NCBI RefSeq assembly: GCF_028279465.1
Contig: NZ_JANQNS010000006.1
Location: 1-64,000 of the forward strand
DNA: 64,000 bases
Source of the DNA: Parasphingopyxis sp.
GTDB taxonomy: Bacteria > Pseudomonadota > Alphaproteobacteria > Sphingomonadales > Sphingomonadaceae
Reading direction: 5' to 3'
The notes under the pieces are model-generated. The model made no database searches, was not told the DNA's origin, and worked only from the letters and a program-made list of their open reading frames with translations. Position numbers and translations under genes: made by a program. Every line of letters starts with the position of its first letter. The first letter of the stretch is position 1. Positions 14,703-64,000 of this stretch are shown piece after piece.

Positions 14703-14906
14703 GCACCATCGGTTCCGCCGCTTTCGCGCGGCGGGCGCTTCCTTTAACCGCGACACGAGCGACACGCAACGGCGGAATGTTCCGGCGGTTATTTGCCGTA
14801 CTCAGGCCGATGCCGCGGTTTCCCGACAGGGAAATTCTGACAAAGCGAATCCATTCCTGCTACGCTCGGTTGCAATTCAAAACCCGATTCGTACCAGGAG
14901 AGACCT

Positions 14907-51812: not shown

Positions 51813-52490
51813 ATGCGCGTACTGATTGTCGAAGACGAACCGACTTTGGGGCGGCAGCTCCGCGCGACGCTCGAAGGCGCGGGCTATGCTGTCGATCTCG
51901 CCACCGATGGCGAGGACGGGCATTTTCTCGGAAGCACTGAAAGCTATGACGCTATCGTGCTCGATCTCGGCCTGCCCGAGATCGACGGGCTGACCGTGCT
52001 CGATCGCTGGCGCAAGGAAGATATTACGATACCCGTGCTGGTGCTCACGGCGCGGGACTCATGGTCCGACAAGGTCGCCGGGCTCGATGCCGGGGCCGAT
52101 GATTATCTGGCGAAACCGTTCCAGACCGAAGAGTTGATCGCGCGGCTGCGTGCGCTGATCCGCCGTGCATCCGGCAACGCGTCGAGCGAGCTCGTCGCCG
52201 GCGATGTCCGCCTCGACACCCGCTCGGGCAAGGTGACGCTGGACGGCGAGCCGGTGAAGCTGACCGCGCAGGAATATAAACTGCTCAGCTACCTCATGCA
52301 CCATAAGGGCAAGGTGGTCAGCCGGACCGAGTTGATCGAACATATCTACGACCAGGATTTCGACCGCGACTCCAACACGATCGAAGTGTTCGTCACACGC
52401 ATCCGCAAGAAGCTCGGCGCCGAGGTGATAACGACGATCCGGGGGCTGGGCTACAGCCTCGAAGACCCGAGCGAGCGGCGAGCTGAATAG
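51813..52490 (+). CDS. OmpR/PhoP-family response regulator
   Basis: This 225-residue regulator has a receiver domain with phosphoacceptor D51 (VLDLGLPEIDG), the switch Thr in VLTARDSW and Lys in DDYLAKPF, and a C-terminal winged helix (LTAQEYKLLSYLMHHKGKVVSRTELIEHIYDQD). It is likely phosphorylated by the downstream sensor kinase. A palindromic element begins at the base after its stop codon and separates it from the kinase gene. Confidence 0.95.
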   Translation: MRVLIVEDEPTLGRQLRATLEGAGYAVDLATDGEDGHFLGSTESYDAIVLDLGLPEIDGLTVLDRWRKEDITIPVLVLTARDSWSDKVAGLDAGADDYLAKPFQTEELIARLRALIRRASGNASSELVAGDVRLDTRSGKVTLDGEPVKLTAQEYKLLSYLMHHKGKVVSRTELIEHIYDQDFDRDSNTIEVFVTRIRKKLGAEVITTIRGLGYSLEDPSERRAE

Positions 52491-52629
52491 TTTGTCAGAC
52501 TCAACCTAGCGGTTGAGCGCCGCACCAGCCCTCTCCCCCTCCCGACCTCCCATTGAGTGTATCCTGTTGGGAGGTCGGGAGGGGGAGAGGGCTGGTGCGG
52601 CGAACTTCCGACAGGAAGTTTCTGACCAA
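52491..52629. repeat. Palindromic element, copy A, between regulator and kinase genes
   Basis: The left end TTTGTCAGA starts on the base after the regulator's stop, and the right end TCTGACCAA differs from an exact inverse by one base. A perfect 34-bp inverted repeat (52519-52552 and 52568-52601) encloses a 15-nt loop. Small hairpins flank it: CTCAACC/GGTTGAG on the left and AACTTCC/GGAAGTT on the right, each around four bases. No protein is encoded. Copy B is at 63233. It could be a miniature mobile element or a structured RNA spacer. Confidence 0.85.
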
Positions 52630-52682
52630 CCAAAACCGCTCTTCGACAAGTCCGGCGCGAAAGGTGTAGTAAGCTCGCGAAT

Positions 52683-54113
52683 ATGGACCAGCCGACGAAA
52701 CATCTTCGCAGAGCGAGCGCCAGCATAGACGCGGCGCGCAAGGGTGGTTCGCTGACCCGGCGCATGATCGGCATCGCCTCGATCTGGATCGTCGTGCTGC
52801 TCGCGATCGGGGGCTTCGCGCTGGACCGGGTGCTGAGCCAGGCCTTCACACGCAATTTCGACGCCCGCCTCGAATATGTGCTCTCCGCGATGATCGTTTC
52901 GGCCGAGCTCGATCCGGATGGCGAGGTCCGCTTTATCCGCCAGCCCGCCGATCAACGCTTCCTCGAACCCTATTCGGGCTTCTACTGGCAGGTATCGGGC
53001 GGCGGGCGCGAACCGTTCCGCTCGCGCTCGCTCTGGGATCGTGCCCTGCCGGTCGGCGAGCCGCATAACGATTTCGAAATCCACAGCTATAACGAGGACG
53101 AGTGGATCGAAGGGCCGCTGCGTATCTTGGAGCGCGATGCGATACTGCCCGAAAGCGATACGCCGTTCCGCTTCCAGGTCGCCTCGTCGCGCGCCGTGCT
53201 CGACGAGCAGATCGCGGAATTGCGGCGCACGCTCGTCCGGTCTTTCGCCCTGCTCGGTCTCGGCCTGATCGCGCTCGCGGCCTTGCAGGCAACCTATGGC
53301 CTCTGGCCGCTCCGGCGGGTGCGCGAGGCGATCACCGATGTCCGCACCGGGCGGCAGGCTCGCGTCGACGAAACGCTGCCGCGTGAGATCGAGCCGCTCG
53401 TCGTCGAACTCAATAACCTGCTCGACCATAATGAGCGCCAGGCCGAGGAAGCGCGGCGCCATGCCGGCAATCTCGCCCATGCGCTGAAAACCCCGCTTAC
53501 CGTGATCCAGAACGAGGCCGAGGCGCAGGATGCCGACCTGCCCGATACGGTGATCCGCGAAGCACGCGTGATGCGGCGGCAGGTCGATCACCATCTGGCG
53601 CGCGCCCGGGCCGTGGGGCGACGCGGCGCCGGCCAGTCGCGCAGCCCGGTCTGGCAGGCGCTCCAATCCGTCGAGCGCGCGGTGCGCCACCTGCACGACG
53701 ATGTGACGATCGATATCGCCGGGGCGCAGGATGCGATCGTCGCCGTCGAGCGGCAGGATCTCGATGAACTGCTCGGTAATCTGATGGAGAATGCCGCGAA
53801 ATATGGCGGCGGACGCGTATTCGTGACGGTCGAAAAGCGTGCGCGTCAGGCCGAATCCGTGCCCGATTTCGTCGATATCCTGATCGAGGATGACGGGCCC
53901 GGCATTCCCGAGGCCGAACGTGACGCGATCTTCGGCCGTGGCGCGCGGCTCGATACGAACCAGCCCGGCACGGGCCTTGGCCTCGCCATCGTCAGCGATG
54001 TGGCCGAAATCTATGGCGGCGCGGTGGCCCTGGAGGAAAGCGAAGATCTGGGTGGTCTGCTGGTGCGGCTCAGCCTGCCGGCCGCCGAAAGCGCGCCGCC
54101 CGAGATCGTCTGA
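52683..54113 (+). CDS. Sensor histidine kinase
   Basis: This 476-residue kinase has an N-terminal helix (about 30-50), a periplasmic sensor of about 130 residues, a second helix (about 185-205), a HAMP-like linker and the kinase core. The phosphoacceptor is H266 in AGNLAHALKTPLTVI. The N box is GNLMENAAKYGG, and DDGPGI and GTGLGLAIV are the ATP motifs. It pairs with the response regulator upstream, from which the palindromic element separates it. The arrangement recalls PhoP/PhoQ, though the sensed signal is unknown. Confidence 0.92.
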   Translation: MDQPTKHLRRASASIDAARKGGSLTRRMIGIASIWIVVLLAIGGFALDRVLSQAFTRNFDARLEYVLSAMIVSAELDPDGEVRFIRQPADQRFLEPYSGFYWQVSGGGREPFRSRSLWDRALPVGEPHNDFEIHSYNEDEWIEGPLRILERDAILPESDTPFRFQVASSRAVLDEQIAELRRTLVRSFALLGLGLIALAALQATYGLWPLRRVREAITDVRTGRQARVDETLPREIEPLVVELNNLLDHNERQAEEARRHAGNLAHALKTPLTVIQNEAEAQDADLPDTVIREARVMRRQVDHHLARARAVGRRGAGQSRSPVWQALQSVERAVRHLHDDVTIDIAGAQDAIVAVERQDLDELLGNLMENAAKYGGGRVFVTVEKRARQAESVPDFVDILIEDDGPGIPEAERDAIFGRGARLDTNQPGTGLGLAIVSDVAEIYGGAVALEESEDLGGLLVRLSLPAAESAPPEIV

Positions 54114-54136
54114 ATCGCGCCGGATCGAGAGGGGCG

Positions 54137-55381
54137 ATGGCGCGCGCATATGAAATCGGCATAGCGGGATGCGGTCCGGGCGGATTGGCGGCGGCGCTGT
54201 TCCTGCACAGGCTCGGCCATCGCATCACCCTGTTCGAACGGTTCGAGGAACCGCGCCCGGTCGGCTCCGGCTTGCTTGTGCAACCGAGCGGCCTCGAGGT
54301 GCTCGAAACGCTCGGCCTGGCCGCACCTATTCGCGAACGCGGCGCGCGCATCGATTTCCTCAAAGGCACCTCCATCCCCTCCGGCAAGCGCGCGCTCGAT
54401 GTCCGCTATGGGGCGCTGCGCGGTGACGCCTGCGCCTATGGCGTGCACCGCGCACTGCTGTTCGGAACGCTGTACGATGCGGTACGCGCCGAAGGCATTG
54501 CGATCGAAACGGGCCGCACCGTCACGGCTGTCGATATCGACACAGGCGGCGGACGGTTCGACTTTGCCGACGGCGCAACGTCCGCCCGGTTCGATTGTCT
54601 GATCGATGCGCTCGGCGCGCGTACCCCGCTGGCCCCGCCATCGGGCCGCGATCTTGCCTATGGCGCCTTATGGGCAACGCTGGATTGGCCGCATGACGTG
54701 AGCTTTCTCGACGATGCGCTCGACCAGCGCTATCGCCGCGCGCATGAGATGGTCGGCGTCATGCCGATCGGCCTCCGGCCTTCGAACGACAAGCAGGGCG
54801 CGGCTTTCTTCTGGAGCGTGCGCGCTGATCAGATCGAGGCGTTGCACGCAGGCGGGACAGCCAAATGGCGCGATACCGTGCTGGCGCTCTGGCCCGAAAC
54901 CGCCCCGCTGCTGGATCAGATCGCCGACACGCGCGACATGGTCTTCGCCCATTATGCACACCGCACCGTTCGCCGACCGGTATCAGCGCGGTTCGCGCAT
55001 CTCGGAGATGCCTGGCATTCGACGAGCCCGCAGCTCGGCCAGGGCGCGAACATGGCGCTGCTCGACGCTGCCGGCCTCGCCTCGGCCTTCCATCGTCATA
55101 CCGATATCGCCGATGCGCTTGCCTATTACGCCTGGCTCCGCACCAACCATATCCAGATCTATCAGGCGCTGAGCTGCGTCTTCACGCCGCTCTATCAGGC
55201 CGGCGACGGCCTCCGCCCTTTCATCCGCGACCAGCTCGTCCACTGGTTCGCCGGCCTCTGGCCCGCCCGCAATCTCGTCGCCGCCATAGTCTCCGGCGGC
55301 ATCGGCTGGCCGCTCAGACCGATGAGGCTGGACGGGTTGGGCAGCCGTAACGCGGCGCCGGTCACAACATCCGGTCCCTGA
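54137..55381 (+). CDS. FAD-dependent aromatic monooxygenase family protein
   Basis: This 414-residue flavoprotein has the Rossmann FAD loop IAGCGPGGLAAALFL, a class A hydroxylase layout with DALGAR, and the second FAD motif GDAWHSTSPQLGQGANMALLDA, as in PF01494 hydroxylases such as UbiH or salicylate hydroxylase. The substrate is not known. It overlaps the DCC-family gene tail by 20 bases on the opposite strand. Confidence 0.88.
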   Translation: MARAYEIGIAGCGPGGLAAALFLHRLGHRITLFERFEEPRPVGSGLLVQPSGLEVLETLGLAAPIRERGARIDFLKGTSIPSGKRALDVRYGALRGDACAYGVHRALLFGTLYDAVRAEGIAIETGRTVTAVDIDTGGGRFDFADGATSARFDCLIDALGARTPLAPPSGRDLAYGALWATLDWPHDVSFLDDALDQRYRRAHEMVGVMPIGLRPSNDKQGAAFFWSVRADQIEALHAGGTAKWRDTVLALWPETAPLLDQIADTRDMVFAHYAHRTVRRPVSARFAHLGDAWHSTSPQLGQGANMALLDAAGLASAFHRHTDIADALAYYAWLRTNHIQIYQALSCVFTPLYQAGDGLRPFIRDQLVHWFAGLWPARNLVAAIVSGGIGWPLRPMRLDGLGSRNAAPVTTSGP

Positions 55382-55814
55382 GCGCGGGATCGGCGATGCC
55401 GCACGCTGCTTTGCGGCCGAAGAGGCGGTAGCGGTGGCGGGCGACGAGATTGTACAGCGCATCGCGGACCGGGCGGGGGATGATCGCAAGCGCCGCGCCG
55501 GCTTTCCATGGCCAGCCGAGGCGCCGGGCGATCTGGGCAACGGCGGTCGAGCGCTGATAGATGCGGCCGTCGGCGATAAGCAGATAGGTCTCGAATGCAT
55601 CGGTCGGCAGGCCGAGATGCCGGTAAAGCGCCTGTCCGATCTCGCCTTGGGCCGGAGTGAGGCGGAAGCGCCGCGCGCGATCGAACCGCAGGATCAGCCG
55701 CATCGAGCGCGAGCAAAGCACGCAATCGCCGTCGAACACGATCAGCGGCTGGCTATCATCGAAATCGGGTACGGCCGGATCGGTGCGCCAGCCATAGATG
55801 TCCGGCGGCGTCAC
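55362..55814 (-). CDS. DCC-family thiol-disulfide protein
   Basis: This 150-residue protein matches the DUF393/DCC family: FDGDCVLCSRSMRLILRFD holds the DxxCxxC motif, and RLTPAQGEIGQALYRHLGL follows. DCC proteins are predicted thiol-disulfide oxidoreductases with a thioredoxin-like core. It ends inside the monooxygenase gene's 3' end and lies 18 bases after the chorismate mutase gene on the same strand, which suggests a two-gene unit. Confidence 0.85.
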   Translation of the reverse strand: MTPPDIYGWRTDPAVPDFDDSQPLIVFDGDCVLCSRSMRLILRFDRARRFRLTPAQGEIGQALYRHLGLPTDAFETYLLIADGRIYQRSTAVAQIARRLGWPWKAGAALAIIPRPVRDALYNLVARHRYRLFGRKAACGIADPALRDRML

Positions 55815-55832
55815 GGAACTAGGGTCCTGACC

Positions 55833-56138
55833 CTAAAGCGGCGAGGGGGCGTCGAAATCCTCGTCGCGAATCTTGCGATGATGCGAGACGACTTCATCGA
55901 TGATGATGCGCAAAAACCGTTCGAGAAAATCGGGGCTGAGGCCGGTTTCGGACGCGAGCGTCTGAAGCCGTTCGACCTGGCGGCGCTCCCGGTCGGGATC
56001 GACCGGCGGCACTGCATTCTCCGCCTTCCAGCGGCCGACTTCGGTCGTGATCTTGAAGCGTTTAGCGAGGAGCGCGACCATCTGGCCGTCGATATCGTCA
56101 ATCTGGTCGCGCCAATGGGCGAGGGGGTCGTCGGTCAT
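55833..56138 (-). CDS. Chorismate mutase, AroQ type
   Basis: This 101-residue all-helical protein fits AroQ chorismate mutase: the helix RDQIDDIDGQMVALLAKR carries the catalytic arginine position, VGRWKAEN follows, DRERRQVERLQTLA is the middle helix, and the third helix ends with IDEVVSHHRKI. It converts chorismate to prephenate for Phe and Tyr. No prephenate dehydratase domain is fused. It is upstream of the DCC gene and divergent from the M15 peptidase gene. Confidence 0.86.
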   Translation of the reverse strand: MTDDPLAHWRDQIDDIDGQMVALLAKRFKITTEVGRWKAENAVPPVDPDRERRQVERLQTLASETGLSPDFLERFLRIIIDEVVSHHRKIRDEDFDAPSPL

Positions 56139-56281
56139 AGGTCGCTCCTGCTGCCGTCCCTTGTCGCGGCAAGGGACGGTCGATGCAAGCCATCTTCGCC
56201 GGACAATCAGTGTCGCTTGATATGTTGGATATCTTATTAGAGCAATATTTGCCTATTTGGTTATTCAACAGGAGACGGACT

Positions 56282-57058
56282 TTGATCGACGATCGCACGG
56301 TGCAGCGCGCACTCGCCAAAGGCGGATTTTACACAGGCGCGATCGACGGCCTCTATGGCGATGTTTCGCGCCGCGCCACGCGGAATGCGCTGATCGCGGA
56401 CGGCCATACCATCGCGCCATGGATCGATCCGCGCTGCCGCATCGCGCTGGAACAGGCGATCATGGCCGAGGCGGGGATCGAAACCGGCCCGATCGACGGC
56501 CTTGTCGGTCCGCAAACCCGGATCGCGCTGGAGCGGTGGCAGGACGGCCAGCGCACCGTCGAGCCGTCTCCCGTCGATATCGCGCACCAGCCCGACCGCT
56601 TCCCGCGCCAAAAGGATGTGCGCGCTTTCTATGGCGCACCGGGCCAGCACCAGACCAAGCTCGACCTCCCCTTCGCGATGCGACTCGCCTGGGATACCGA
56701 CACGATCGTCCGCCGCTTTTCGATCCACGAAAAAGTGCATGACAGCGCCGCGCGCGCCTTCGCCCGGATCCTCGATCATTATGGCGAAACGAAACTGCGC
56801 GCACTCGGCCTCGACCTGTTCGGCGGCTGCCTGAACGTGCGCAGAATGCGCGGCGGCACGGCGATGTCGATGCATAGCTGGGGCATGGCGATCGATTTCG
56901 ATCCCGCGCATAATGCCTTGCGCTGGAACCGCGACCGGGCGCGCATGGCGCGGCCCGCCTATGCGCGCTTTCTCGACATCTGGGAGGAGGAAGGCTGGGT
57001 CAGCCTGGGCCGCGAACGCAATTATGACTGGATGCACGTCCAGGCGGCGCGGCTCTAG
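56282..57058 (+). CDS. Peptidoglycan-binding M15 peptidase
   Basis: I choose the TTG at 56282 because AGGAGA lies six bases before it and the sequence upstream is AT-rich promoter-like DNA, giving 258 residues. An ATG at 56222 and another at 56183 are in frame but lack support. Residues 1-35 and 75-100 look like peptidoglycan-binding repeats (QRALAKGGFYTGAIDGLYG and GIETGPIDGLVGPQTR). The C-terminal part has the M15 D-Ala-D-Ala peptidase motifs SMHSWGMAIDFDP and YDWMHVQ. It would trim or turn over peptidoglycan. No signal peptide is seen with this start, and no phage gene is nearby. Confidence 0.78.
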   Translation: MIDDRTVQRALAKGGFYTGAIDGLYGDVSRRATRNALIADGHTIAPWIDPRCRIALEQAIMAEAGIETGPIDGLVGPQTRIALERWQDGQRTVEPSPVDIAHQPDRFPRQKDVRAFYGAPGQHQTKLDLPFAMRLAWDTDTIVRRFSIHEKVHDSAARAFARILDHYGETKLRALGLDLFGGCLNVRRMRGGTAMSMHSWGMAIDFDPAHNALRWNRDRARMARPAYARFLDIWEEEGWVSLGRERNYDWMHVQAARL

Positions 57059-57651
57059 GAGGGTTTTTGCCTTCGCCCGAACACGCGCTTCAGGACGCGG
57101 CCCGCCGCCCATAGCAGCCCGAGCGTAAACAGCAGGACCAGCGCGAATATGGCGACCGCCAGTCCCGGATTCGCGAGCGCCGCAACGGTCAGCCCGGCCG
57201 TCGCCACATCTTCCCCGGTGGAAACGACCACATTGCTGAACGGCTCGGGACTCGCATTGATCGCGGCCCGGCTGCTGGCCTTGGCGCCATGGCCGAGCAG
57301 CGCGCCCCCGCCGCCCAGGAGCAGCGCCACGATCTGCCAGGCCGGATCGTTCGCATCGACGATAGCGAGCGCCAGCAGCGCGCCGCCGACCGGCCGGATC
57401 AGCGTGTGCAGCCCGTCCCACAGGCTATCGAGCCAGGCGACCTTGTCGGCGAAGAACTCGACGACCAGACCGATTCCGGCCACACCGATGACCCAAGGAT
57501 TGGCGAGCGCGGCCAGCATCTCCAGATTTTCCGGCAGCGCGATCCAGCCCGTCCGCATCGCAAGGCCCGTCGCGAAGATCACGAAATAGAGCCGCCATCC
57601 GGCGAGCAGGCTGACCGATCCGGCCAGCGCGACAAGTTCCACAGCGCTCAT
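57055..57651 (-). CDS. DUF4126 membrane protein
   Basis: The start at 57651 (MSAVELVALAG) gives 198 residues; the frame is open to 57720 but overlaps the Nudix gene start. Four to five helices are predicted, with the DUF4126 patterns GWRLYFVIFATG, EFFADKVAWLDSLWDGLHTLIRP and GHGAKASSRAAINASPEPFSN. The family has no known function. It converges with the M15 gene, sharing four bases at the stops, and is divergent from the Nudix gene. Confidence 0.82.
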   Translation of the reverse strand: MSAVELVALAGSVSLLAGWRLYFVIFATGLAMRTGWIALPENLEMLAALANPWVIGVAGIGLVVEFFADKVAWLDSLWDGLHTLIRPVGGALLALAIVDANDPAWQIVALLLGGGGALLGHGAKASSRAAINASPEPFSNVVVSTGEDVATAGLTVAALANPGLAVAIFALVLLFTLGLLWAAGRVLKRVFGRRQKPS

Positions 57652-57698
57652 CGGCACGAATGCTGGCACAGCGCCGCACGAATGTGTAGGCACGGCGC

Positions 57699-58481
57699 AT
57701 GGATTTCGAGACCAATACAAATCCCGGTATTCCGGCCGCCACGCTGATTCTCATGCGCGATTCCGATGCGGGCGCACCCGATGTGCTGATGGTCGAGCGC
57801 GCCCGGAAAATGGCGTTCGCGGGCGGCGCGATGGTGTTTCCCGGCGGCCGGATCGACCCCGGCGATCATGCGATTGCCGAGAATGACGCGATCGTCCGCG
57901 GCGCGCCGGACGACTCTTTGCAGACCGCAGCGCGGATTGCGGCGATCCGCGAGACGCTGGAGGAGACAGGCATCGCCGTCGCCTTCGATCCGCTGCCCGA
58001 TCATGGCGCGACCGTGCAGCTGCGCGAAGCATTGCATGAAGAGAGCGATTTCGGCGCGATGCTCGCGAGCGGCGGCTGGCAGCTCGATCTCGATCTGCTG
58101 ACGCCCTGGGCGCGCTGGATGCCGAATTTCAAGCAGGAGCGCAACTTCGACACCTGGTTCTTCGTCGCCCGCGCGCCGGCGCTGGCGAAGAACAAGGCCG
58201 ATGGCGGCGAGAGCGTATCGAGCCGCTGGACCGCCGCGCAGCAGGTGATCGACGAGGCTGAGGCCGGGAAATGCTCGATCATCTTCCCGACGCACCGCAA
58301 TCTCGAGCGGCTCGCCCGCCTTGAAAGCTATGAAGAAACGCGCGTGCATGCCGAGGCGCATGCGGTGAAGATGATCACGCCCTGGGTCGAGGATCGTGAC
58401 GGCGAGAAATTCCTCTGCATTCCCGAAGACGCCGGCTATCCGGTGACGGCCGAAAAGGTGACGCGGATGATTCGCGGCTGA
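57699..58481 (+). CDS. Nudix hydrolase
   Basis: This 260-residue protein has a Nudix box spread over the pattern GGRIDPGD and AAIRETLEETGIAV, in which REtxEE is intact though an insertion separates it from the first glycine. It resembles the NUDT19/RPP-like group that hydrolyses CoA or nucleotide diphosphates, judging from length and the C-terminal WTAAQQVIDEAEAGK. The substrate is not proven. It is divergent from the DUF4126 gene. Confidence 0.85.
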   Translation: MDFETNTNPGIPAATLILMRDSDAGAPDVLMVERARKMAFAGGAMVFPGGRIDPGDHAIAENDAIVRGAPDDSLQTAARIAAIRETLEETGIAVAFDPLPDHGATVQLREALHEESDFGAMLASGGWQLDLDLLTPWARWMPNFKQERNFDTWFFVARAPALAKNKADGGESVSSRWTAAQQVIDEAEAGKCSIIFPTHRNLERLARLESYEETRVHAEAHAVKMITPWVEDRDGEKFLCIPEDAGYPVTAEKVTRMIRG

Positions 58482-58545
58482 GACTTCACGCGGCGTTCAG
58501 GACGATAGCGCGAAACGCCCTCATGCCGATTTTCCGGAGACTTTG

Positions 58546-59166
58546 ATGCGACCGATCCGATACCTGCCCGCGCTGCTGCTCAGCTGCATCGCCCTTCCCG
58601 CCGCCGCTCAGGACATGGCCGACGGGCCGACCGAGATGCCGCAGGGCACCTATATGGTCTTTGCCGACGAGGCCGGATCGGCCTTCGCAACCTATAATCC
58701 GGCACTGGCCGAAACCGGCGTCTGGCCGCTCAGCTTTTTCTATTTTCAGGCGGGCACGCTGGCGGGCACCGCGCGCATGTCGGCCAGCCCGCAATGCGAT
58801 CAGGGCATTGTGCGCGGCCGGCTGACCCATGCCATGGGACCGGACGGCGCGGTGATGGAGCTGCCGCAGAGTGCCGAGATGCCGTCCTTCTCATTCGACC
58901 GTGCGGGCGGTGGCGGCGATCAGGCGATTGTCGATTTCATCTGCGGCTCCGTGCAGGACCGGCTGATCCAGGCGCAGACGCCCGTATATAATAGCCTCGA
59001 AGCGACGGCCAACAGCTATGCGCAGCTGCGCGCGCTCGGCCTTGACGGTCCGCTTGCACAAAGCCTCGCGATCCGCGACCGCGAGGCGGCCGAGCCGCTG
59101 ATCGGCACGGCCGTGCCCGAGGCGCTGCGCGATCAGGTGCGTGCGCTGATCGATCCCCGGCACTAG
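58546..59166 (+). CDS. Secreted protein of unknown function
   Basis: The ATG at 58546 with GGAGA upstream is chosen over the TTG just before it, giving 206 residues. A signal peptide ends near LPAAAQ. The mature part has a beta-rich N-terminal half with two cysteines (SPQCDQG and FICGS) and a helical C-terminal half (VPEALRDQVRAL). I recognise no family. It may be a periplasmic protein of the envelope. It lies 65 bases after the Nudix gene. Confidence 0.62.
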   Translation: MRPIRYLPALLLSCIALPAAAQDMADGPTEMPQGTYMVFADEAGSAFATYNPALAETGVWPLSFFYFQAGTLAGTARMSASPQCDQGIVRGRLTHAMGPDGAVMELPQSAEMPSFSFDRAGGGGDQAIVDFICGSVQDRLIQAQTPVYNSLEATANSYAQLRALGLDGPLAQSLAIRDREAAEPLIGTAVPEALRDQVRALIDPRH

Positions 59167-59181
59167 GCCGGAGCCGTACCG

Positions 59182-60006
59182 CTATGTTGCCACCGCACCG
59201 CCCGGATAGGCGATAAGGATCGTGCCCGCATGGCTGAGATCGGCCGCGCCATCGGTAAGCCATACGGTACCCGGCGCCAGCTTTGCATCGCCAAACGCCC
59301 CTTCGCCCGCGAGCGGGATCAGCCAGTGCGGCCGCTCGAGCGACGCGGCAAGCGTCCGCTCCGTCGTGCCGGTCCAGCGCTCGAGCACGAATTTCCGACC
59401 CGCCGCCAATATCTCCCGCCCCGGCGAGACCATGCCCGGCGCATCGGGGGCGGCCCAGGGCCCCGGATGCGCGACGGCCACGGCATCGTCGAGATGCAGG
59501 TCGCGCGGCCGCCCATAATCGTAAAGCCGATAGGTGAGATCGATATTCTGCTGCACTTCGAGCAAGGTCACGCCCGCGCCGATCGCGTGGATGGTGCCGG
59601 CCGGCAGGTAGAACAGGTCTCCGGCCGTGACCGGCCTCCAGTCGAGCATCGCCTCGACCGAGCCATCCAGCGCGGCGCGTCTGAGCTGCTCGGCATCCAC
59701 CGTCTCGACCAAGCCGATGCCGATCTGCGCCCCGGGGTCCGCATCGAGGATCAGCCAGCATTCTTCCTTGCCGTAGCGATGCCCGCGTGCTTGCGCCGCG
59801 GTATCGTCCGGATGGACCTGCACCGAGAGCTTCGCGCTCGTGAACAGATATTTGACGAGCAGTTCAGGTGCCGTGCCATCCGGCGTTTCGAACCAGATTT
59901 CGCCGATCGGTTCCGCATCAGGCGCGGGATCGGCGAAACCGAGGCCGAGTCTGTGCCGGCCCCAGACCTTCTCGATGGCCCGTTCGGTCAGTCTGGTCGC
60001 GGACAT
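59182..60006 (-). CDS. manA: Class I mannose-6-phosphate isomerase
   Basis: This 274-residue cupin enzyme interconverts fructose-6-phosphate and mannose-6-phosphate, feeding GDP-mannose. Metal-binding residues are seen in SVQVHPDD, GKEECWLILD and FYLPAGTIHAIG, and LLEVQQNIDLTYRLYDYGR is the conserved stretch of the family. With the guanylyltransferase gene at 29440 it gives the two ends of the GDP-mannose route, though phosphomannomutase is not in the window. Confidence 0.9.
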   Translation of the reverse strand: MSATRLTERAIEKVWGRHRLGLGFADPAPDAEPIGEIWFETPDGTAPELLVKYLFTSAKLSVQVHPDDTAAQARGHRYGKEECWLILDADPGAQIGIGLVETVDAEQLRRAALDGSVEAMLDWRPVTAGDLFYLPAGTIHAIGAGVTLLEVQQNIDLTYRLYDYGRPRDLHLDDAVAVAHPGPWAAPDAPGMVSPGREILAAGRKFVLERWTGTTERTLAASLERPHWLIPLAGEGAFGDAKLAPGTVWLTDGAADLSHAGTILIAYPGGAVAT

Positions 60007-60030
60007 AGCCGATACTCTTCCGTTGCACGC

Positions 60031-60219
60031 ATGAAGCGGCTTATGGATGAAAAAGCGGCGAAAGGCATCAGCAATGCGGACGATAACGGGACTGGCGATA
60101 CCAGCACTGTTCTTCGCCGCCAGGCTCTATATCGCCCATTAAGCCCGGGCGCGCGTGCCGATCATTTCCTTCTGGACCAGACCGACCGCGGACGGTTCCG
60201 CCGGGTGCTTTGCCGTTAG
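60031..60219 (+). CDS. Possible small ORF
   Basis: A 62-codon frame (MKRLMDEKAAKG to RRVLCR) runs between the isomerase start and the converging hypothetical gene and shares its stop with that gene's stop, as other true gene pairs here do. It has no ribosome site, contains rare codons and is in frame with a long shadow ORF opposite the isomerase gene. I see no family. It is listed as a candidate only. Confidence 0.25.
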   Translation: MKRLMDEKAAKGISNADDNGTGDTSTVLRRQALYRPLSPGARADHFLLDQTDRGRFRRVLCR

Positions 60220-60668
60220 CTTCCGACGCGGCCCTCTTCGACGACCGTCATCTCGCCGCCGGAGTGATGAAAGGCATTATATTCGACGATATCGTTAAGC
60301 CGGTCGTCGCTGCGCGCCAGCGCTTCGGCACGCGTATCGCCGAAACCGAAACCGATCAGGGTGCGGACCCGGCCATTATATTCAACGCCGCCTGCGACCA
60401 CGACATAGTGGCCGGCGCCGCTATAGGTCTGGCAGATAATGCGGCCGGGATCGCGATTGCGTTCGCGCAGCTCGTTTTCGGCCGCTTCGCGCAACAAAGA
60501 ACCGTCGACATCGCCGGCCTCGGACTTGGCGACCGCATAATCGTCGAAGCTGAGAATGCCGTTGCGGTCTTCATTCGACGCTATGCAACCGGCAATCGTG
60601 CCCGCGGACGCCGGGACGGCGGTGGCCATGGCGATGGCTGGGATGCTGAATGTGATGAACGATTTCAT
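60216..60668 (-). CDS. Small secreted protein of unknown function
   Basis: This 150-residue protein has a signal peptide (cleavage near PASAG). The mature protein is acidic, with repeated Asp/Glu segments (SNEDRNGILSFDDY, which loosely recalls a calcium loop) and a Gly-rich VGFGFGDTRAEALARSDD. Two cysteines could form a disulfide. I recognise no family. Its ATG follows GGGAG within a leader hairpin. It is read after the hypothetical gene at 60746. Confidence 0.6.
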   Translation of the reverse strand: MKSFITFSIPAIAMATAVPASAGTIAGCIASNEDRNGILSFDDYAVAKSEAGDVDGSLLREAAENELRERNRDPGRIICQTYSGAGHYVVVAGGVEYNGRVRTLIGFGFGDTRAEALARSDDRLNDIVEYNAFHHSGGEMTVVEEGRVGS

Positions 60669-60677
60669 GGCTCTACT

Positions 60678-60700
60678 CCCGAAAACCCTATGCTTTCGGG
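60678..60700 (-). promoter_or_regulatory. Leader hairpin over the ribosome site
   Basis: CCCGAAA and TTTCGGG pair around nine bases, ten bases before the ATG at 60668. The GGGAG ribosome site partly overlaps one arm, so the hairpin could limit translation. A TATGAT-like -10 lies further upstream (60704-60709). Confidence 0.4.
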
Positions 60701-60745
60701 CGTATCATAGAACAAATTTCTCCGAATCGGAAGCGCGCTGACGGC

Positions 60746-61297
60746 CTAGTGCGGCACGGCGTTTTCCGGAACCTTCTCGACCCAGTCCGGATAGAAGGCC
60801 GGGGCACGGTTCGACCAGCCCGGCGCGGTCGCCGCAGCTTCGCTGATCGATTGCAGCAATATGCGCCGGCGCTCGGGATGGATATGGGGCAGCGCGGCCG
60901 CCGCGCAGAAGGAACCGGGCAGCCAGGGCCGGACATAGGGGCCGAGCAGCCGCTCATAGAGGAACCGATAGGCGGAGAAGGTCGGCAGCCTGTCCTGCCC
61001 GAGATCGAAGGCCGACACCGTGACCAGCGGGCCCATGAACGGCTCGACCGCATCGAGGCCGCTATCGTCGGGAATGGTCTCGCGAATATCGTCGAGCCGC
61101 TTGTAAACGCTGGACTGCGCCTTGATCGCCGCAGCTTCGACCATGTCGCGCGACCATTTGCGGATCGCGTCGCGTCGTTCGAGACCGACATCGAGCGAGC
61201 GGCGGACATAACGCTGGGTCGATGCTTCGAACGACGCGAACTCCTTCATCTCGGCAAGCGCCATCGCGCCGGGCTGGGGAGTGTTGGTCTTCGTCAT
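60746..61297 (-). CDS. Hypothetical protein
   Basis: The ATG at 61297 with GGAGG upstream gives 183 residues. It is helical in the first 100 residues (MKEFASFEASTQRYVRRSLDVGLERRDAIRKWSRDM) and has a proline-rich LGPYVRPWLPGSF. No signal, helices spanning the membrane or known motif are seen. The helix-rich N-terminal half slightly recalls phasins, but this is not supported further. A role is not known. Confidence 0.55.
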   Translation of the reverse strand: MTKTNTPQPGAMALAEMKEFASFEASTQRYVRRSLDVGLERRDAIRKWSRDMVEAAAIKAQSSVYKRLDDIRETIPDDSGLDAVEPFMGPLVTVSAFDLGQDRLPTFSAYRFLYERLLGPYVRPWLPGSFCAAAALPHIHPERRRILLQSISEAAATAPGWSNRAPAFYPDWVEKVPENAVPH

Positions 61298-61493
61298 CGA
61301 ACCCTCCGGTCCGTTGTTGATCCGTGAGCCGATTATGGCACGCAACAGGTTGACGAAGCGTTAACCATAAGCCGCTGTAGCGCCTCTTGAATCACTTATG
61401 TTGCAGCGCATCAACCGTCTTTTGTAATTTTATGTGGATTCAAGCAATATTGTTGCACGAAAACACCGGCTAAGTCGTTTTCGGCCCGGAAAT

Positions 61494-61838
61494 CTAGGCC
61501 GCCGCGCGCTCCGGCCCCAGCAGCAGGACGCGCACATCGCCCTTCGCCGAGTAGCTGACGATCAGCAGATAAGTCGCCAGGAACAACATGCCGCCGAAAA
61601 AGGCGGGAATTGCGAGAATGAGTCCCGTCACGCTGAATTGGTGCCGCCAGGCGACCCAGAGCGCGGACAGCGCGAGGAAAGTGGCAAAATCGACATTGAA
61701 CTGGCCCGGCCAGCCAAAGGCGAGAATATCGCCAAAGAAATCGGAAAACAGATTGGCGCCGTGATTGGCGATGACGGGCGCGGTATAGCCCACAATTATC
61801 ACGAGAAACACGATCAGCAGCAAGCGGAATGCGGTCAT
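61494..61838 (-). CDS. Hypothetical membrane protein
   Basis: The ATG at 61838 with GGAGGA upstream gives 114 residues with three predicted membrane helices (about 5-22, 46-63, 71-97). I recognise no family. It is a single gene between the hypothetical gene at 60746 and the LytS-type kinase gene. An ATG at 61868 is in frame but lacks a ribosome site. Confidence 0.6.
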   Translation of the reverse strand: MTAFRLLLIVFLVIIVGYTAPVIANHGANLFSDFFGDILAFGWPGQFNVDFATFLALSALWVAWRHQFSVTGLILAIPAFFGGMLFLATYLLIVSYSAKGDVRVLLLGPERAAA

Positions 61839-62088
61839 AATGTCCTCCGGAATCGGTGCGTGAAACAACCGCTAGGTCCCGCCGAACGGCGATTCAACTA
61901 CCTCGCGGGTAAAGGCACCGCCGCATTCGGCCCCATAAGCGCGTGGTACGGGACTCACGCGAATCCATCGGTATCCGGCGCTTCGGGGCCGCATATTTCG
62001 ACGAACGTATCGACAAAGCGCTATGGCCGTTCGACTGGAAGCGCGCCACGGCGAGACGGATCGCGTTCCAGCCGCTACAAGACGCCTC

Positions 62089-63231
62089 ATGGACGGCAGA
62101 TCGCTCGACATTTCGCGCAATGCGGCAATCGGACACCGGCTGGGGCTGGTGTCGGTGCTCGGGCTATGGGGATTCTATTTCGTCGTCGTGACGATCCGCG
62201 CCGCGGTCATGGCCTATCCGGGCCAGTTCGAAATGCTGATCTACCGGATATTCGTGATCGGCTTTGCGATCGGCCTCACCTTCCTGCTCTATCTGTTCCT
62301 CGAACGGTTCGCCGACCGGCCGTTGCGCTGGCGCATCCCGATTGCCTTCGCCGCCGCGCTGCCCTTCGCCGCCGCGATCGCCGCATTCAATTTTTACGTG
62401 TTCGAGGTGCTCGATCCGCTGCAGATATTCAAGGGCGAAGAGTGGGAAGAACAGCGCGAGATGATCGAGGAGTTCCAGGCGCGCGATCCGCTGGCCATGT
62501 GGCGCGGCTTCGCCGAGGCCGTGCTGTCGCGATATTTTGTCGTGATCGCCTGGGCGCTGCTCTATATGGCGCTCGGCTATGCGCAGATCGTGCGCCAAGC
62601 CGAACGTCGCGCCGCGATCTTCGCGCAGGAGGCGCAGACCGCCCAACTCCGCGCGCTGCGCTATCAGGTCAATCCGCATTTCCTGTTCAATACGCTCAAC
62701 GTCCTTTCCTCGCTCGTCATGCGCGACCGGCGCGACGAGGCGGAGAAGATGATACTCAACCTCTCCACCTTCTACCGCACGAGCCTGACCGCCGAGCCGG
62801 CCGACGATGTCGCGCTGGAAGAAGAGATCCGGCTGCAGCGTCTCTATCTCGATATCGAGGCCGTAAGGTTCCCCGAGCGGTTGATCGTCGACATTGAAAT
62901 CCCAAAGTCGCTGAACGGCTGCTGCGTGCCCGCGCTGATCCTGCAGCCGATCGTCGAGAATGCGATCAAATATGGCGTGTCGCGCGTACGCCGCCCGGTG
63001 ACGGTGTCGATCCATGCGCGCGCGGAGAATGGCAAACTCATCATCACCGTATCCGACGATGGCGATCCCCTGCCCGACGATGCGCCGCACGGCACCGGGG
63101 TCGGCCTCAACAATGTCTATGAGCGGCTCGACGCACGCTATGGCGACGAGAGCAACGTCACATGGGGGCCGATGGACGGCGGCGGGTTCGCCGTGACACT
63201 CGAACTGCCCATCAACAAAGAGACGTGCTGA
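62089..63231 (+). CDS. LytS/YehU-type sensor histidine kinase
   Basis: From the ATG at 62089 it has 380 residues; ATG 62023 is a less likely alternative and neither has a strong ribosome site. Four helices (to about residue 180) precede a His_kinase domain with H197 in RYQVNPHFLFNTLNVLSSL, the N box LQPIVENAIKYGV and the G box GTGVGLNNVYERL. It belongs to the LytS family and would phosphorylate the LytTR regulator that follows. The element copy B begins at the second base after its stop. Confidence 0.92.
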   Translation: MDGRSLDISRNAAIGHRLGLVSVLGLWGFYFVVVTIRAAVMAYPGQFEMLIYRIFVIGFAIGLTFLLYLFLERFADRPLRWRIPIAFAAALPFAAAIAAFNFYVFEVLDPLQIFKGEEWEEQREMIEEFQARDPLAMWRGFAEAVLSRYFVVIAWALLYMALGYAQIVRQAERRAAIFAQEAQTAQLRALRYQVNPHFLFNTLNVLSSLVMRDRRDEAEKMILNLSTFYRTSLTAEPADDVALEEEIRLQRLYLDIEAVRFPERLIVDIEIPKSLNGCCVPALILQPIVENAIKYGVSRVRRPVTVSIHARAENGKLIITVSDDGDPLPDDAPHGTGVGLNNVYERLDARYGDESNVTWGPMDGGGFAVTLELPINKETC

Positions 63232-63232
63232 T

Positions 63233-63370
63233 TTTGTCAGACCTTCGCTTCGCTCAGGCGCGGCACCAGCCCGCTCCCCCTCCCGACCTCCCAATCAGGG
63301 TATACTCGTGGGAGGTCGGGAGGGGGAGCGGGCTGGTGCCGCGATTTTCCGCCAGGAAAATTCTGACAAA
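63233..63370. repeat. Palindromic element, copy B, between kinase and regulator genes
   Basis: The ends TTTGTCAGA and TCTGACAAA are perfect 9-bp inverted repeats. A perfect 34-bp inverted repeat (63260-63293 and 63309-63342) encloses a 15-nt loop, as in copy A. The right small hairpin is ATTTTCC/GGAAAAT, which keeps pairing despite two base changes from copy A. The element begins one base after the kinase stop and ends 40 bases before the regulator ATG. It encodes no protein. Confidence 0.88.
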
Positions 63371-63410
63371 CAACTCAGAAACACATGCACTCCAACGGAC
63401 TTCCAGCACC

Positions 63411-64000
63411 ATGACCGACACAGCACCGCTTCGTACTCTACTCGTCGACGACGAGCCGCTCGCCATCGAGCGTATGCAGATCCTCTGCGCGCGCACCGAG
63501 GGTATCGACCTGATCGGCACGGCGCAGGATGGGGAATCCGCGCTGCGCATGGTCGAAGCGCTGCAGCCTGAGCTGCTGCTGCTCGATATCGCGATGCCGG
63601 GCATGGACGGGATGGAAGTCGCCCGCGCGCTGGACGGGTTCGATCTCGCCCCGGCGATTATCTTCGTAACCGCTTTTGACCAGTTCGCCGTCGAGGCCTT
63701 CGATGTCGCGGCCGTCGATTATCTCTTAAAACCCGTCGCGCCCGAACGGCTCGAAAAGGCGATCGCCCGCGTTACCGAACAGATCCGGGAAACGCGCGAC
63801 AGCACGGACGAGGATTCGCCCTGGGCCGAGGAATTCTGGGTGCCGCACCGCTCCGAGGTGATCCGTGTGGCGTCCGAGGATATCGACCGGGTCGAGGCGG
63901 AGCGGGACTATATGCGCCTCCATATCGGCGAGCGCAGCTATCTGCTCCACCAGACGATCAGCAATCTCGAAGAGCGGCTGGACCCCGACCATTTCATCCG
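63411..64000 (+). CDS. LytTR response regulator (cut by window end)
   Basis: The ATG at 63411 opens a receiver domain (LLVDDEPLAIERMQ, D59 in LLLLDIAMPGMDG, Thr in IIFVTAFDQF, Lys in DYLLKPV), then the start of a LytTR DNA-binding domain (SEVIRVASEDIDRVEAERDYMRLH). The open frame runs off the end at 64000 after 196 codons; about 40-60 more would complete it. It pairs with the LytS-type kinase upstream, with the palindromic element between them. Confidence 0.93.
   Translation, partial: MTDTAPLRTLLVDDEPLAIERMQILCARTEGIDLIGTAQDGESALRMVEALQPELLLLDIAMPGMDGMEVARALDGFDLAPAIIFVTAFDQFAVEAFDVAAVDYLLKPVAPERLEKAIARVTEQIRETRDSTDEDSPWAEEFWVPHRSEVIRVASEDIDRVEAERDYMRLHIGERSYLLHQTISNLEERLDPDHFI

What the first reader, a model, noticed from the sequence alone, without database searches (positions are those of the whole stretch)
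63233..63370. Element copy B sits in the same position in a second, unrelated two-component pair
A second full copy lies between a LytS-type kinase and its LytTR regulator, starting one base after the kinase stop. Gene order is reversed relative to copy A (kinase first), so it is not a duplicated operon. Two for two full copies inside two-component operons, both hugging the upstream stop codon, suggests targeted placement or selected function rather than chance.
Basis: partly seen in the sequence, partly recalled or inferred. Interest (0 to 1): 0.78.

Follow-up and report, generated by a model that had tools for sequence, protein, structure and literature searches.

The report
Three-hairpin DNA repeat beside stop codons
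The element is one of dozens of copies of a short folded DNA repeat that sits right after gene stop codons in this bacterium and its relatives; it is not tied to signalling genes, and the two outer hairpins of a copy are almost always different from each other, which suggests a rule about how the repeat must fold.

Summary
Window 63233-63370 is a complete 138-nt repeat starting one base after the stop codon of a LytS-type kinase, before its LytTR regulator. The two-component link is not: the genome holds about 57 copies, and apart from the two that prompted the idea only one was found beside a response-regulator gene. Stop-codon adjacency is real and genome-wide: 31 of 42 scorable copies have a stop within 12 nt (2.5 expected); 21 of 42 lie between convergent genes. 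Anatomy: 9-nt inverted ends, two outer hairpins, one central 34-35-bp GC-rich hairpin. The outer hairpins fall into about five stem types and covary strongly; in 0 of 103 typed copies from two genomes do the two stems agree within one mismatch (17 expected), although non-adjacent hairpins repeat freely. A model of the element matches 55 of 157 sampled genomes of the order; other genera keep the central hairpin with different outer ones. Best reading: a REP/BIME-like dispersed palindromic repeat, a new variant rather than a member of the published GTAG or CGTC families, spread by an unknown agent and kept at gene 3' ends. A boundary function is inferred, not shown. Preference for unlike partners and 3'-end location were already published for REPs.

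The parts
63233..63241 (+). left terminal inverted repeat TTTGTCAGA
   Evidence: pairs with 63362-63370; 60 of 96 own ends counted are exactly this
63242..63258 (+). left outer hairpin, type E (CCTTCGC..GCTCAGG)
63259..63292 (+). central stem, 5' arm (GC-rich, 34 counted pairs)
   Evidence: 98.2% of cells in the main central helix paired
63293..63309 (+). central loop containing GGGTA (read TACCC in other copies)
63310..63343 (+). central stem, 3' arm
63344..63361 (+). right outer hairpin, type C (ATTTTCC GCCA GGAAAAT)
63362..63370 (+). right terminal inverted repeat TCTGACAAA
62089..63231 (+). LytS-type histidine kinase; stop 63229-63231. Start uncertain: 62023 is also possible
63411..64000 (+). 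LytTR response regulator, continues past the window end
52491..52629 (+). copy A, flush with the TAG stop of an OmpR-type regulator; left hairpin type A, right type D
14805..14844 (+). lone half unit: inner GGCCGATGCCGCG, hairpin TTTCCC-GACA-GGGAAA, TCTGACAAA

Best explanation
Copy B is a lineage-specific insertion of a dispersed, protein-less palindromic repeat that works like a REP dimer or BIME. SHOWN: a fixed anatomy (short inverted ends, two outer hairpins, a long central hairpin); dozens of copies in this genome and in G005; strong covariation in the outer hairpins; the two outer hairpins of a copy avoid being alike far more than chance; copies concentrate directly after stop codons and between convergent genes; the copy B gap holds no full element in the eight congeners where the operon was found. 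INFERRED: the repeat is spread by a trans-acting enzyme not identified here; the unlike-ends rule exists because like ends would merge the three hairpins into one long perfect palindrome, which is either cleared by repair nucleases or cannot form the junction needed for spread; copies survive at gene 3' ends because they do no harm there and may act as a boundary for transcription or RNA decay. In the kinase-regulator operon copy B would then partly uncouple the two genes. That last step is untested.
For: Copies: 57/56 arms in the own genome; 72/73 in the one-contig relative G005. Covariation: 57 pairs over 52 copies, 95.7% of cells paired, covariation score 0.290 against 0.095 in shuffles and at most 0.060 when slid; all 14 outer-hairpin pairs change on both sides. 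Unlike ends: arms within one mismatch in 0 of 103 typed copies (44 own, 59 G005), 17.1 expected, 0 of 2000 shuffles. Control: inner hairpins against the outer unit of the other side match in 9 of 59 (10.1 expected), while opposing inner ones match in 0 of 88 (15.2 expected) (expectations from random draws, no probability computed). Location: 31 of 42 with a stop within 12 nt; 21 convergent, 19 tandem, 2 divergent; in other genera 48 of 63 within 20 nt. Copy B gap without a full element in 8 of 8 congeners where the operon was found, of 9 searched; two convergent gaps without an element in G005.
Against: No mobilising enzyme identified: no Y1 transposase in the own genome, G005 or G002, while G006 and G008, which also hold copies, have one Y1 gene each without recognisable element ends beside it. 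No target-site duplication was seen by eye; this was not tested systematically and relatives are diverged. One covariation measure, the number of further pair types, does not exceed shuffles (118 of 500 reach it). GT pairs (39) do not exceed AC mismatches (36) over all helices, so RNA-level selection on the stems is not evident; in 19 tandem copies the sense strand shows 18 GU against 10 AC, suggestive only. Loop orientation relative to transcription is mixed (6 one way, 10 the other, 3 unclear). I judged nine gaps to hold an element in both the own genome and G005, so some copies are old or some gaps are hot spots. Gene calls are from my own simple caller, and null gaps come from loci chosen for holding copies.
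Confidence: 0.6

Rival explanations
1. Purely selfish or neutral repeat: insertion favours a short motif (G-rich, then TTTG) that happens to include stop codons such as TTAG, and copies elsewhere are purged because they break genes or promoters. No host function.
For: Flanks share a G-rich stretch then T at -4 to -2 in 61-70% of 84 ends; only 2 of 42 copies in divergent gaps; arm counts differ among congeners (forward arms G005 72, G002 26, G009 3, G004 3; the pattern is tuned to this genome and its reversed control gives 0-3 per strand, so low counts are uncertain); the copy B gap holds no full element in relatives.
Against: Within their own gaps copies still hug stops more than chance (31 against 17.9 expected). 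Pairing is maintained by compensatory changes.
Confidence: 0.3
2. Bidirectional transcription terminator recruited by the host.
For: 21 of 42 copies lie between convergent genes; in 11 of those 21 both stops are within 15 nt of the element, so little else is left in the gap to end transcription.
Against: Reading the sequences (no terminator scan was run), no T-run follows the central stem except before type C ends (4-5 T). G002 manages the first L143 gap with 3 nt between stops and no evident hairpin (read by eye). GU pairs are not in excess overall.
Confidence: 0.25
3. Two-component-specific regulatory element.
For: Both full copies in the window; one more regulator gene beside a contig-end copy.
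Against: Apart from the window's four genes, the 81 flanking genes of 42 copies look like other, mostly housekeeping genes (by eye); 1 of 55 copies besides the prompting two touches a regulator gene.
Confidence: 0.03
4. The unlike-ends rule is only palindrome instability: like-ended copies would be ~60-bp-arm perfect palindromes and are removed by SbcCD-type nucleases or slippage, without any need for a three-hairpin fold. (Compatible with the best explanation; it concerns the cause of the rule.)
For: Published suggestion for REP heterodimers (PMC3733652, section read). A relic that seems to have lost its centre lies in one gap of G002 (read by eye).
Against: The tolerated central stem is already 34-35 bp plus 9-bp ends. 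Same-side neighbours, which are direct and not inverted, are also depleted (3 of 59, 10.1 expected), though slippage could explain that.
Confidence: 0.45

Closest known systems
CGTC-tagged REP repeats of alphaproteobacteria (Di Nocera et al. 2013, PMC3733652)
   Same: Small hairpins in inverted pairs with tags outside; unlike partners preferred in most families; in S. wittichii most copies between convergent genes lie within 20 bp of both 3' ends; no dedicated transposase found
   Different: Here AGA separates TGTC from the stem, stems are mostly 7 bp, there is no CCA tail, outer units are often tandem, and a long conserved central hairpin joins the pair; in other genera only 1 of 93 scored ends carries CGTC or TGTC. 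That paper also lists families with only like partners, such as N. aromaticivorans CGTC-2
GTAG REPs, REPINs and RAYT transposases
   Same: Dispersed palindromic dimers in 3' flanks
   Different: No GTAG tag; no Y1 transposase in G000, G005 or G002; the Y1 genes of G006 and G008 are not flanked by recognisable element ends
BIME mosaic elements of Escherichia coli (details recalled)
   Same: Mosaic of palindromic units in alternating orientation, unlike unit types combined, gene 3' flanks
   Different: Unrelated sequence; long central stem
REPs within 15 nt of stop codons that reduce translation in E. coli (cited within PMC12306157, passages read)
   Same: Distance to the stop codon
   Different: Effect untested here; far larger structure

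Membership tests
CGTC REP superfamily | Unpaired CGTC (or TGTC/CCTC) tag directly against the stem, no extra bases | tested here: not met
   Own ends read TTTGTC-AGA-stem; other genera 1 of 93 ends with CGTC/TGTC in the last 8 nt outside the hairpin. Definition from text and Table 1 of PMC3733652; its Figure 2 could not be seen
CGTC REP superfamily | Stem 8-9 bp starting with A-T pairs, loop 4-5 | tested here: not met
   Stems 7 bp in most ends (8 in long type C), first pair C-G or A-T; loop 3-5
CGTC REP superfamily | Tail fitting CCA | tested here: not met
   Hairpin is followed by CGCGGCACC or CGCCGCACC in most copies
CGTC REP superfamily | Inverted dimers with tags outside, 3'-end location | tested here: met
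GTAG REP / RAYT REPtron | GTAG tag | tested here: not met
   the 12 commonest end variants
GTAG REP / RAYT REPtron | Associated Y1 (PF01797) transposase gene | tested here: not met
   None in own genome; 2 of 10 genus genomes have one (G006, G008, both of which hold copies of the element), but those two loci show no TTTGTCAGA motif (up to 1 mismatch) and no paired arms; L334 has two unpaired weak arm matches
Intrinsic terminator | GC hairpin followed at once by a T-run | tested here: inconclusive
   Judged by reading the sequences only: type C ends give 4-5 T, others none; no terminator scan was run
Rfam family | Score above the gathering cut-off | tested here: not met
   Only sub-threshold matches (microRNA families and one UTR family) in window 52000-64000
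DDE-type MITE | Target-site duplication | tested here: inconclusive
   Flanks read by eye show none; no systematic test, and empty sites are diverged

The most novel reading that the evidence does not exclude
An order-wide element of Sphingomonadales, with scattered likely relatives in other alphaproteobacterial orders, built as a conserved central hairpin plus two interchangeable outer hairpins that must differ from each other, so that the DNA is forced into a four-way junction which an unknown protein recognises to move or maintain copies at stop codons. The rule is about fold, not sequence: lineages swap outer hairpins and tags but keep the centre and the mismatch between ends.
Probability: 0.25. 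Interest if true: 0.75.

Novelty: new variant of a known kind. Interest (0 to 1): 0.5.

Why it matters
Preference for unlike partners in palindromic repeats was called without obvious explanation in 2013 (PMC3733652). Here it is nearly absolute, local to hairpins facing each other across the central stem, seen in a one-contig genome, and echoed in other genera with different hairpins. That makes a clean test system: replication stability or junction recognition. It also gives a large natural set of stop-codon-adjacent structures, some with empty orthologous sites, for measuring effects on RNA ends and operon coupling.

Tried and rejected
Two-component targeting: rejected by genome-wide context. 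RAYT mobilisation in this genome: no Y1 match, while 6 of 14 control genomes ring; G006 and G008 do have a Y1 gene, so a RAYT elsewhere in the genus is not excluded. Known RNA family: none above cut-off in the stretch searched. Phage origin: no phage record matches; two sphingomonad plasmids do, over about 60% of the query.

Rows dropped and counts against the reading. Own copies: 57 extracted, 48 with both ends recognised, 45 after dropping three mirror-image like-ended copies at contig ends (L034, L044:34, L138) as assembly artefacts, 44 typed, 42 with both flanking genes. With the artefacts kept, 2 of 47 typed own copies are within one mismatch (7.4 expected, 30 of 2000 shuffles). Two kept contig-end copies, L132:3394 and L133:62, share one flank and hairpin and may be one junction counted twice. 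By a coarser type label 3 of 103 copies are same-type (22.3 expected, 0 of 20,000 shuffles), all three in the own genome, where 9.3 were expected (177 of 20,000). G005: 53 stretches chosen from a capped list, 66 copies parsed, two more lacked an end, 59 typed. Other genera: loci are best model matches; 65 of 66 parsed (L260 short), 35 with both ends clear, of which 1 (L319) is like-ended; it was not among the 30 that could be shuffled within a genus (0 of those 30; 5.1 expected; 94 of 5000 shuffles gave 1 or fewer). No placement null was run for the other genera. Named kinase loci: 64 of 80 searched with the model; one confident locus, L112, a Sphingomonadales metagenome assembly. Own/G005 shared gaps: 7 of 9 cores align better inverted, but only L131/L197 is a clear whole-array inversion, so no inversion claim is made.

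Literature: the listings showed no description of this element; the library lacks most subscription journals. PMC3733652: abstract and outline, passages, sections 5, 7, 14 and 15 in full, section 17 part 1 of 2; figures not held. PMC12306157: passages only. Other listed papers: search listing only.

Full report
WHAT IS THERE. The 138 bases at 63233-63370 are a complete copy of a repeat starting one base after the TGA of a LytS-type kinase and ending 40 bases before its LytTR regulator. The anatomy is TTTGTCAGA, outer hairpin, central arm, loop, central arm, outer hairpin, TCTGACAAA. As single strand it folds as three hairpins joined by the paired ends (z -13.9). Copy A at 52491-52629 has the same anatomy with two other outer hairpins, flush with the TAG stop of an OmpR-type regulator. 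A lone half unit lies at 14805-14844.

GENOME-WIDE COUNT. The 3.3-Mb assembly has 57 forward and 56 reverse matches to the central arm, with 0 and 1 for the reversed control pattern. I extracted 57 paired copies. With a looser pattern, G005 (one contig) has 72 and 73 arms, control 1 and 1; G002 26 and 26, control 2 and 3; G009 3 and 4, control 0 and 0; G004 3 and 5, control 1 and 2. The pattern is tuned to this genome, so the low counts are uncertain. A DNA-similarity search found matches in 19 of 60 genomes, this one included.

PLACEMENT. For 42 own copies with both neighbours called, 21 lie between convergent genes, 19 between co-directional genes and 2 between divergent genes; 31 have a stop codon within 12 nt of the element, outer tandem units included. 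Uniform placement over intergenic positions gives 2.5 with a near stop and 6.7 convergent; neither observed value was reached in 20,000 simulations. Shuffling each copy only within its own gap gives 17.9. In 11 of the 21 convergent gaps both stops lie within 15 nt of the element. Flanks are G-rich then TTTG-like; TAG is the commonest stop near copies (22 of 41, against 125 of 327 overall). In other genera 48 of 63 copies have a stop within 20 nt of the inferred edge, 27 convergent, 31 tandem, 5 divergent (no null run). The caller is my own script, and the null gaps come from loci fetched because they hold copies.

TWO-COMPONENT LINK. Flanking genes look mostly like housekeeping genes (read by eye; product names recalled). 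Beyond the window's four two-component genes, one response regulator flanks a contig-end copy (the search is weak for kinases). The genome has 22 receiver-domain matches, 21 over the cut-off. Three of 57 copies touch a regulator gene, against about 0.8 by my estimate, or 1 of 55 without the two that prompted the idea. This does not support targeting of two-component operons.

UNLIKE ENDS. The outer hairpins fall into about five stem types. In 0 of 103 typed copies (own genome 44, artefacts removed; G005 59) are the two arms within one mismatch, against 17.1 expected (0 of 2000 shuffles). By a coarser label 3 of 103 are same-type against 22.3. Many copies carry extra outward tandem units of about 44 nt. 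Opposing inner hairpins match in 0 of 88 (15.2 expected); same-side neighbours in 3 of 59 (10.1 expected); an inner hairpin and the outer unit of the other side in 9 of 59 (10.1 expected); opposing outer units in 0 of 7 (1.2 expected) (expectations by random draw). So the avoidance is local. Because G005 is a single contig and its copies were located by the central arms alone, assembly breakage does not explain it there. In other genera 1 of 35 copies with clear ends is like-ended (L319); among the 30 that could be shuffled within a genus there are none, 5.1 were expected, and 94 of 5000 shuffles gave 1 or fewer.

COVARIATION. On 52 copies (42 own, 10 G005) 95.7% of cells pair; all 14 outer-hairpin pairs change on both sides; the covariation score is 0.290 against 0.095 for shuffles and at most 0.060 for slid versions. 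The number of further pair types does not exceed shuffles (118 of 500). GT pairs (39) are no more common than AC mismatches (36), so I cannot claim selection on an RNA strand. Wholesale exchange of hairpins or arm-to-arm copying in DNA would give the same picture.

SPREAD AND LOSS. The kinase-regulator operon was found in 8 of 9 congeners (not in G007), and the gap has no full element in any of the eight; G001 has a short hairpin with degraded ends that looks like a relic. So copy B is most simply a gain in this lineage. Two convergent gaps at L143 hold no element in G005; at the first, G002 has only 3 nt between stops, and at the second G002 and G009 keep relic-like hairpins (junctions read by eye). 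I judged nine gaps to hold an element in both this genome and G005, copy A's among them, mostly with different outer hairpins or orientation; L147/L201 keeps one hairpin type. No Y1 transposase was found in this genome, G005 or G002; G006 and G008, which also hold copies, have one each, without recognisable element ends beside it.

BREADTH. A covariance model (short calibration, rough E-values) matches 55 of 157 sampled genomes of the order, this one included, in 19 of 57 genera, and 10 of 144 genomes drawn from the class, again including this one. Of 18 other-genus loci from the order survey (L251-L269 without L260), chosen as best matches, all show the central GC-rich hairpin; 9 have a clear hairpin on both sides, 6 on one side, 3 on neither. 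Of seven loci from the class survey (L287-L293) all keep the central hairpin, with a clear hairpin on both sides in 1, on one side in 4 and on neither in 2. Two sphingomonad plasmids carry partial matches; no phage record does.

COMPARISON. Di Nocera et al. 2013 (PMC3733652) describe GTAG and CGTC REPs, the latter mainly in alphaproteobacteria and without a transposase; inverted dimers predominate, unlike partners are preferred in most families with no obvious explanation (nuclease clearance of like partners is suggested there), some families have only like partners, and in S. wittichii most copies between convergent genes lie within 20 bp of both 3' ends. The present element shares these habits but fails the tag, stem and tail definitions in that text. 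I could not see that paper's Figure 2, so one of its sphingomonad families may still be a relative. Stop-proximal REPs are reported to reduce translation in E. coli (passages of PMC12306157).

VERDICT. Real, non-random and not a two-component feature. A new variant of REP-like repeats, with an unusually strict unlike-ends rule and a conserved central hairpin. Function at the RNA or DNA level remains inferred.

Noticed in passing
own assembly contig ends, e.g. L034:33-170, L044:34-173, L138:3442-3581: Thirteen of 21 contigs begin or end within about 100 bases of this repeat (my tally), and three such copies have perfect mirror-image flanks, a sign that the assembler turned back through the palindrome.
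   Followed up: partly
G005:C1 about 2.5-2.77 Mb; G002:C1 about 1.85-2.2 Mb: Copies look denser in one chromosome sector in both genomes (capped list, by eye); cause unknown, not tested.
   Followed up: no
L131:3280-3464 and L197:6537-6758: At the same gene gap in two species the array of three hairpin types is present in opposite orientation, suggesting in-place inversion or independent insertion.
   Followed up: partly
L040:3276-3412: A copy lies between genes that look like lepB and rnc (RNase III; names by recall); both genes adjoin without it in G005.
   Followed up: no
L181 (G001) kinase-regulator gap; L282 (G002) and L284 (G009) second L143 gap: Short hairpins with degraded end motifs look like relics after loss of the central stem (by eye).
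   Followed up: partly
G162 and G157 loci (L251, L258, L294-L298, L305-L309): One genus carries two classes of outer hairpins with different tags around the same type of central hairpin (by eye).
   Followed up: partly
L031:2820-2960: A further full copy lies about 2.8 kb beyond the window end, near the contig end.
   Followed up: no
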